64,000 nt of DNA from Candidatus Siliceabacter maunaloa. Lineage in GTDB: Bacteria; Actinomycetota; Thermoleophilia; Solirubrobacterales; Solirubrobacteraceae. The position numbers and the translations under genes are program-made. The DNA is taken from contig JANDLV010000014.1 of the NCBI GenBank assembly GCA_024330185.1, forward strand, positions 1-64,000. Reading direction: 5' to 3'. This document shows, one piece after another, positions 17,359 to 17,659 of this stretch. Below the pieces are notes generated by a model. It ran no database searches. It was given only the letters and a program-made list of their open reading frames with translations, and was not told the DNA's origin. Numbering within the stretch: the stretch's first letter is position 1; each line of letters begins with the position of its first letter.

Positions 17359-17549
17359 CGCGGTATCTCGTCTGGGCGCGCGGGCCGCACTCCGCCAGGA
17401 ACGTTCCGATCGTGGACGTGAGGCGTGGGCACGTACGCGCCTCTTGCCTTGTTGAAATGCGACTTACCGTCTCGGTCAAAGCGACGGGATGTGCGGAAGT
17501 CCTGAGGATCACGGGGATCTGCGCGCTCGTAGGTCGTGTACTTCTTCAC
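17355..17549 (-). CDS. Orphan RHS toxin tip (partial)
   Basis: The ORF has 64 residues from a GTG codon, but the reading frame stays open 15-20 codons upstream (DASGRVKKYTTYERAD), so this is the end of a longer tip. Key segments are SRRFDRDGKSHFNKARGAYV, PTPHVHDRNVPGG and RPARPDEIPR. They match the PTPHxH...P-E/D-IP pattern of RHS toxin tips, tentatively the type 24 group. The main RHS protein ends in a diverged version of the same domain. No delivery core is attached; only a 33-bp piece of RHS core lies upstream, out of frame. Imm53 follows with a 4-bp overlap. Confidence 0.65.
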   Translation of the reverse strand: MKKYTTYERADPRDPQDFRTSRRFDRDGKSHFNKARGAYVPTPHVHDRNVPGGVRPARPDEIPR

Positions 17550-17599
17550 TCGACCCGATGCATCACGGGCGAGACGACGAAAGTCGAGGGATGCTTGGA

Positions 17600-17632
17600 G
17601 TCATAGGCAAACTGCCAGACCTTGGCGCCCAC
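17600..17632 (-). repeat. 33-bp exact copy of RHS core
   Basis: Bases 17600-17632 are identical to 21088-21120 inside the RHS core, where they encode VGAKVWQFAYD. After the match the orphan copy runs into toxin-tip sequence in a different reading frame. It looks like the junction left by recombination between an RHS core and a horizontally acquired tip cassette. Confidence 0.8.
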
Positions 17633-17659
17633 CGAGAGAGCGCTGCCTACAGTAAGATA

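What the first reader, a model, noticed from the sequence alone, without database searches (positions are those of the whole stretch)
17549..17640. 33-bp RHS core footprint in front of the orphan tip
Seen: 17600-17632 equals 21088-21120, which encodes VGAKVWQFAYD in the core. After the match, the RHS frame quickly stops, while the tip frame is open from one base over (DASGRVKKYTTY). The source segment is from the core's start, not its end, so the event was not a simple tip replacement at the usual conserved junction.
Basis: partly seen in the sequence, partly recalled or inferred. Interest (0 to 1): 0.6.

Follow-up and report, generated by a model that had tools for sequence, protein, structure and literature searches.

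The report
Decayed scar at an orphan Rhs tip
A bacterial weapon gene has left a short 33-base piece of itself in front of a worn-down spare toxin end; this is a real trace of past DNA shuffling, of a kind already known from such genes, and it probably has no function now.

Summary
The 33-bp repeat is real: 17600-17632 equals 21088-21120 exactly, on the same strand (39/41 if extended). It occurs nowhere else in the assembled genome or in 231 other genomes of the order. Repeats inside the RHS gene share at most 16 exact bases, so the footprint came from that one YD repeat. The 'orphan tip' is a second Ntox24 toxin end: 5'-truncated, out of the RHS frame, and followed by an intact Imm53 immunity gene. 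The attached tip is also Ntox24, with a HEAT-repeat immunity gene. This is a dissociated Rhs tip-immunity module of the kind described in 2009-2011. The unusual detail is that the core remnant comes from near the core's start and joins the middle of the tip, skipping the conserved junction. Most likely a displaced 'core fragment + tip2 + Imm53' lost nearly all its core and the 5' part of the tip by a later illegitimate deletion. A templated patch made during end joining is the main rival; the data do not separate them. No ancestor joining this core to this tip was found. By reading frame, recombination between the repeats could not restore a usable toxin. Ordinary, with a modest mechanistic twist.

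The parts
17600..17632 (-). 33-bp footprint, identical to the core segment 21088-21120
17585..17599 (-). zone in which core-like sequence passes into tip2; 17592-17599 agree with the core at 6 of 8 bases
   Evidence: in-register comparison and alignment
21088..21120 (-). source segment in an early YD repeat of the RHS core (VGAKVWQFAYD)
17633..17659 (-). 27-bp spacer between the imm1 stop and the footprint; no likeness to the core or to other parts of the window (no exact 11-mer)
17355..17600 (-). tip2: 5'-truncated Ntox24 toxin end, open in the tip frame, no ATG; the only in-frame common start is GTG at 17549-17547
   Evidence: (E 0.029, below the Pfam cut-off)
17050..17358 (-). imm2, Imm53 immunity protein, intact; its GTG overlaps the tip2 stop
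   Evidence: E 4e-27
17660..18070 (-). imm1, HEAT-repeat protein, presumed partner of tip1
18064..21204 (-). RHS ORF-B: YD/RHS repeats and the attached Ntox24 tip1
21324..23327 (-). RHS ORF-A: N-terminal part with PD40 and DUF6531; frame broken against ORF-B near 21331

Best explanation
A dissociated (orphan) Rhs tip-immunity module that has decayed. An earlier version of this RHS gene, or a donor with the same core, carried tip2 + Imm53. A new segment (core + Ntox24 tip1 + HEAT immunity gene) took over the attached position and pushed the old tip downstream, together with a core fragment starting at the base now at 21120. Later an illegitimate deletion removed nearly all of that core fragment, the conserved DPxGL junction and the first part of tip2. 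It left the first 33-41 bp of the core fragment fused out of frame to the middle of tip2. Imm53 stayed intact and may still protect against related Ntox24 toxins; tip2 itself is probably inert. Shown: the repeat, its source, the truncation, the frame shift, the intact Imm53. Inferred: the order of events, the deletion, and the present role of Imm53.
For: Exact unique repeat. Order rhs-tip1-imm1-[core piece]-tip2-imm2 is that of published displacement arrays, in which detached tips keep core pieces of variable length from the same upstream gene, mostly lack start signals, and degenerate by frameshifts and stops (PMC2935791; PMC3150448). Tip2 starts inside the Ntox24 domain. Imm53-linked tips on L021 and L024 are cut from the 5' side too, with Imm53 whole. 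Ntox24-Imm53 is a known pair (PMC3482391). The same genome has a canonical case on contig C115: a 425-bp core-end duplication at 90% followed by a second tip.
Against: No intermediate or ancestor with a longer core piece before tip2 was found. Two breakpoints are needed (the left edge of the fragment and the deletion). The 33/33 identity followed by 10/17 does not look like even decay of one longer fragment. There is no composition step in the core at 21120.
Confidence: 0.5

Rival explanations
1. Templated patch: a break or replication error between imm1 and tip2 was repaired by end joining or template switching. The lost DNA (5' part of tip2 and whatever lay before it) was replaced by 33-41 bp copied from the RHS core 3.5 kb away. 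No long core fragment was ever attached to tip2.
For: Short patch with a sharp edge, no likeness on the imm1 side. A short likeness (AAGCA) at the tip side could have guided the switch. The genome encodes Ku.
Against: Does not by itself explain why a tip + Imm53 lies behind imm1. A copied patch of this kind in bacteria rests on general knowledge of end joining; no paper on it was read here.
Confidence: 0.3
2. Direct recombination at an early YD repeat: the tip exchange itself crossed over at 21088-21120, so that almost the whole core travelled with tip1, and the old gene before it already had its early core joined to tip2.
For: Two direct copies bracket core remainder + tip1 + imm1 (3,488 bp), the layout expected after a single crossover with a circle (model in PMC2935791). 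Out-of-order core joints occur in this genome: on C115 near 1431-1467 of L033 a core-end piece runs, with a frame change, into interior YD repeats.
Against: 33 bp is short for homologous crossover. The joint to tip2 is out of frame and truncated, so the gene before the event would already have been broken. No composition step at 21120.
Confidence: 0.12
3. Assembly artefact: the contig was wrongly joined through a short repeat.
For: The genome is a draft of 120 contigs, with RHS genes on several small contigs.
Against: Contig C115 ends in a shared 54-bp stretch, which suggests (inference) a final assembly word of about 55, longer than the 33-bp repeat. The core copy is in frame with its neighbours on both sides.
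Confidence: 0.05
4. The footprint now serves as a short translated leader (GTG at 17632 to TGA at 17546) that keeps ribosomes moving to tip2 and Imm53.
For: The leader stop TGA overlaps the GTG at 17549-17547 in the tip2 frame, and the tip2 stop overlaps the Imm53 GTG.
Against: Such overlaps arise by chance; no clear ribosome-binding site is seen by eye; no relative exists in which conservation could be tested.
Confidence: 0.03

Closest known systems
Dissociated rhs C-terminal tips left by C-terminal displacement (Jackson et al. 2009, PMC2935791)
   Same: A tip fragment with its own downstream gene lies behind an rhs gene and carries a piece identical to that gene's core; no proper start; degenerate.
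   Different: There the core piece runs on to the conserved 3' end of the core and the tip. Here only 33-41 bp from near the core's start remain, and the conserved junction and the tip's 5' part are missing.
Orphan CdiA-CT/CdiI and Rhs-CT/RhsI modules (Poole et al. 2011, PMC3150448)
   Same: Toxin fragment without start signals followed by an intact immunity gene.
   Different: No VENN/DPxGL motif in front of the tip, and the toxin part is truncated, so reloading on the main gene looks impossible.
Ntox24 / Imm53 polymorphic toxin pair (Zhang et al. 2012, PMC3482391)
   Same: tip2 resembles Ntox24 and is followed directly by Imm53.
   Different: tip2 alone scores below the Pfam cut-off because it is truncated. 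The attached Ntox24 tip1 has a HEAT-repeat partner, which the passages read in that paper do not list for Ntox24.

Membership tests
Dissociated rhs tip (C-terminal displacement) | Lies downstream of an rhs gene, same strand, after its immunity gene | tested here: met
Dissociated rhs tip (C-terminal displacement) | Carries a core piece (nearly) identical to the upstream core | tested here: met
   33/33, 39/41
Dissociated rhs tip (C-terminal displacement) | Core piece includes the conserved 3' end of the core and runs on into the tip | tested here: not met
   Source is 21088-21120, near the core's start; no DPxGL before tip2
Dissociated rhs tip (C-terminal displacement) | Same tip found attached to a full rhs gene in a relative | tested here: inconclusive
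   No close one found. A related tip is attached to an RHS protein in a Cyclobacteriaceae MAG, L022
Ntox24 | Match over the Pfam PF15529 cut-off | tested here: not met
   tip2 15.1 bits against 24; tip1 28.4 bits, met. tip2 and tip1 are 44% identical over the shared part
Imm53 | Match over the Pfam PF15580 cut-off, full length | tested here: met
   94.3 bits, positions 1-91 of 92
Imm53 | Neutralises the cognate toxin | not testable with these tools
   needs an experiment

The most novel reading that the evidence does not exclude
Tip exchange in these actinobacterial RHS genes can cross over at early YD repeats instead of the conserved DPxGL junction, so that the whole core is a recombination substrate and leaves short out-of-place footprints.
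Probability: 0.12. Interest if true: 0.45.

Novelty: new member of a known kind. Interest (0 to 1): 0.22.

Why it matters
It is a sequence-level trace of how orphan toxin-immunity modules decay: the toxin end and its core fragment erode while the immunity gene stays whole. It also shows two Ntox24 ends with two unrelated immunity genes side by side. If early-core footprints proved common, the usual picture of tip exchange at one conserved junction would need widening.

Tried and rejected
Chance match: excluded. General genomic repeat: excluded. Match to any YD repeat by shared motif: excluded; places inside the RHS gene share at most 16 exact bases. A second core-derived patch at 17546-17569 (24 nt, 75% to two core places) was considered; it lies in the tip-homologous RDASGR region and is most likely chance. 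Composition step in the core marking imported DNA: none seen. Other RHS contigs of the same genome share no nucleotide-level core with this one at E 1e-5. G001, the only other genome held from the genus, lacks the RHS island next to purA. The two other Imm53 genes found in the phylum sample have no Ntox24 tip upstream. A scan of 20 other loci, most of them RHS loci, for exact direct repeats of 22 bp or more found a clear core duplication only on C115. Paper searches gave no description of core-start footprints, but only a few searches of an open-licence library were made.

Full report
Observation. On the - strand the locus reads: RHS ORF-A (23327-21324; PD40, DUF6531), RHS ORF-B (21204-18064; 20 RHS-repeat stretches, Ntox24 tip1), imm1 (18070-17660; HEAT repeats), a 27-bp spacer, the footprint (17632-17600), tip2 (tip frame open from 17600 to the stop at 17357-17355), and imm2 = Imm53 (17358-17050). 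The footprint is identical to 21088-21120 over 33 bases. In register, nothing is alike on the imm1 side; on the tip side 10 of the next 17 bases agree, a level reached at 0.55% of core offsets. Whether those extra bases are true core or a short likeness that guided a joint cannot be decided. The sequence has two copies in the genome and none in the other genomes of the order.

The tip. Tip2 and tip1 are relatives (44% identity over about 57 residues). In an alignment with four relatives and one C-terminal fragment, tip2 keeps the PTPHVH and RPARPDEIP blocks but starts inside the domain. Tip1 and the Cyclobacteriaceae RHS protein on L022 have a further GDHT-containing stretch before this. Two other Imm53-linked tips, in a Planctomycetota MAG (L021, beside transposase-like ORFs) and a Porticoccaceae MAG (L024), are cut from the 5' side as well, with Imm53 whole as far as the contig reaches. 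Ntox24-Imm53 is a published pair (PMC3482391). A HEAT-like gene following an Ntox24-like tip is seen again in Nocardia (L026).

Can the module be reloaded? Published models give orphan modules a role as a reservoir: recombination in the shared core or at the VENN/DPxGL motif puts the spare tip on the main gene (PMC3150448, PMC2935791). Here the shared stretch is 33-41 bp, tip2 lies out of the RHS frame, and that frame stops 17 codons after the footprint. Tip2 also lacks part of its domain. From the reading frames alone, reloading would not give a usable toxin; the joined product was not built. The part most likely still doing something is Imm53 (inference).

Origin. Displacement leaves detached tips with core fragments of variable length identical to the upstream core. 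The 33 bp would be the first bases of such a fragment, the rest having been deleted into tip2. A patch templated from the core during end joining explains the same bases, and the genome has Ku. The same genome shows, on contig C115 (L033), a core-end duplication (425 bp at 90%) followed by a second tip, plus a joint where a core-end piece runs, with a frame change, into core-interior repeats. Ordinary displacement and out-of-order joints therefore both occur in this genome, which makes the present scar less exceptional.

Relatives. G001, the only other genome held from the genus, has no RHS island next to purA. G060, in the same family, has a homologous core (64.8% over 3,153 bases) in one open frame with an unrelated tip. 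So the core is shared and its tips change between genera, as expected. No ancestor joining this core to tip2 was found.

Verdict. That the footprint is a recombination scar is supported. That the displacement event itself was atypical is possible but not required by the data. Displacement plus deletion (0.5) and a templated patch (0.3) remain open.

Noticed in passing
window 21324-21345: The RHS reading frame is broken between ORF-A and ORF-B at a run of six C (+ strand 21331-21336). The homologous core of G060 is one open frame across this place. It may be a real disruption or a sequencing error.
   Followed up: partly
window 16582-24776: The RHS locus with a Crp-like regulator and a Uma2-like ORF is an island: in G001 the genes flanking it are adjacent to purA.
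   Followed up: partly
window 16700-17020: A fragment that looks like the C-terminal part of FdhD (by eye) lies between purA and the RHS module, perhaps truncated when the island arrived.
   Followed up: no
window 17660-18070 and 17050-17358: Two Ntox24-type ends in one locus have unrelated immunity genes (HEAT repeats and Imm53); an Ntox24-like tip followed by a HEAT-like gene also occurs in Nocardia (L026).
   Followed up: partly
L033 (own genome, contig C115) 1-2720: Core-end duplication with two tips, and a joint near 1431-1467 where a core-end piece is fused, with a frame change, to interior YD repeats. The contig ends share an inverted 54-bp stretch.
   Followed up: partly
L049/L052 and L050/L053: Two other genomes of the phylum carry a solitary Imm53 gene with no Ntox24 tip upstream.
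   Followed up: partly
window 26857-26930: Exact 36-bp-offset tandem duplication inside an aminotransferase-like ORF (GTNADGSAVA repeated).
   Followed up: no
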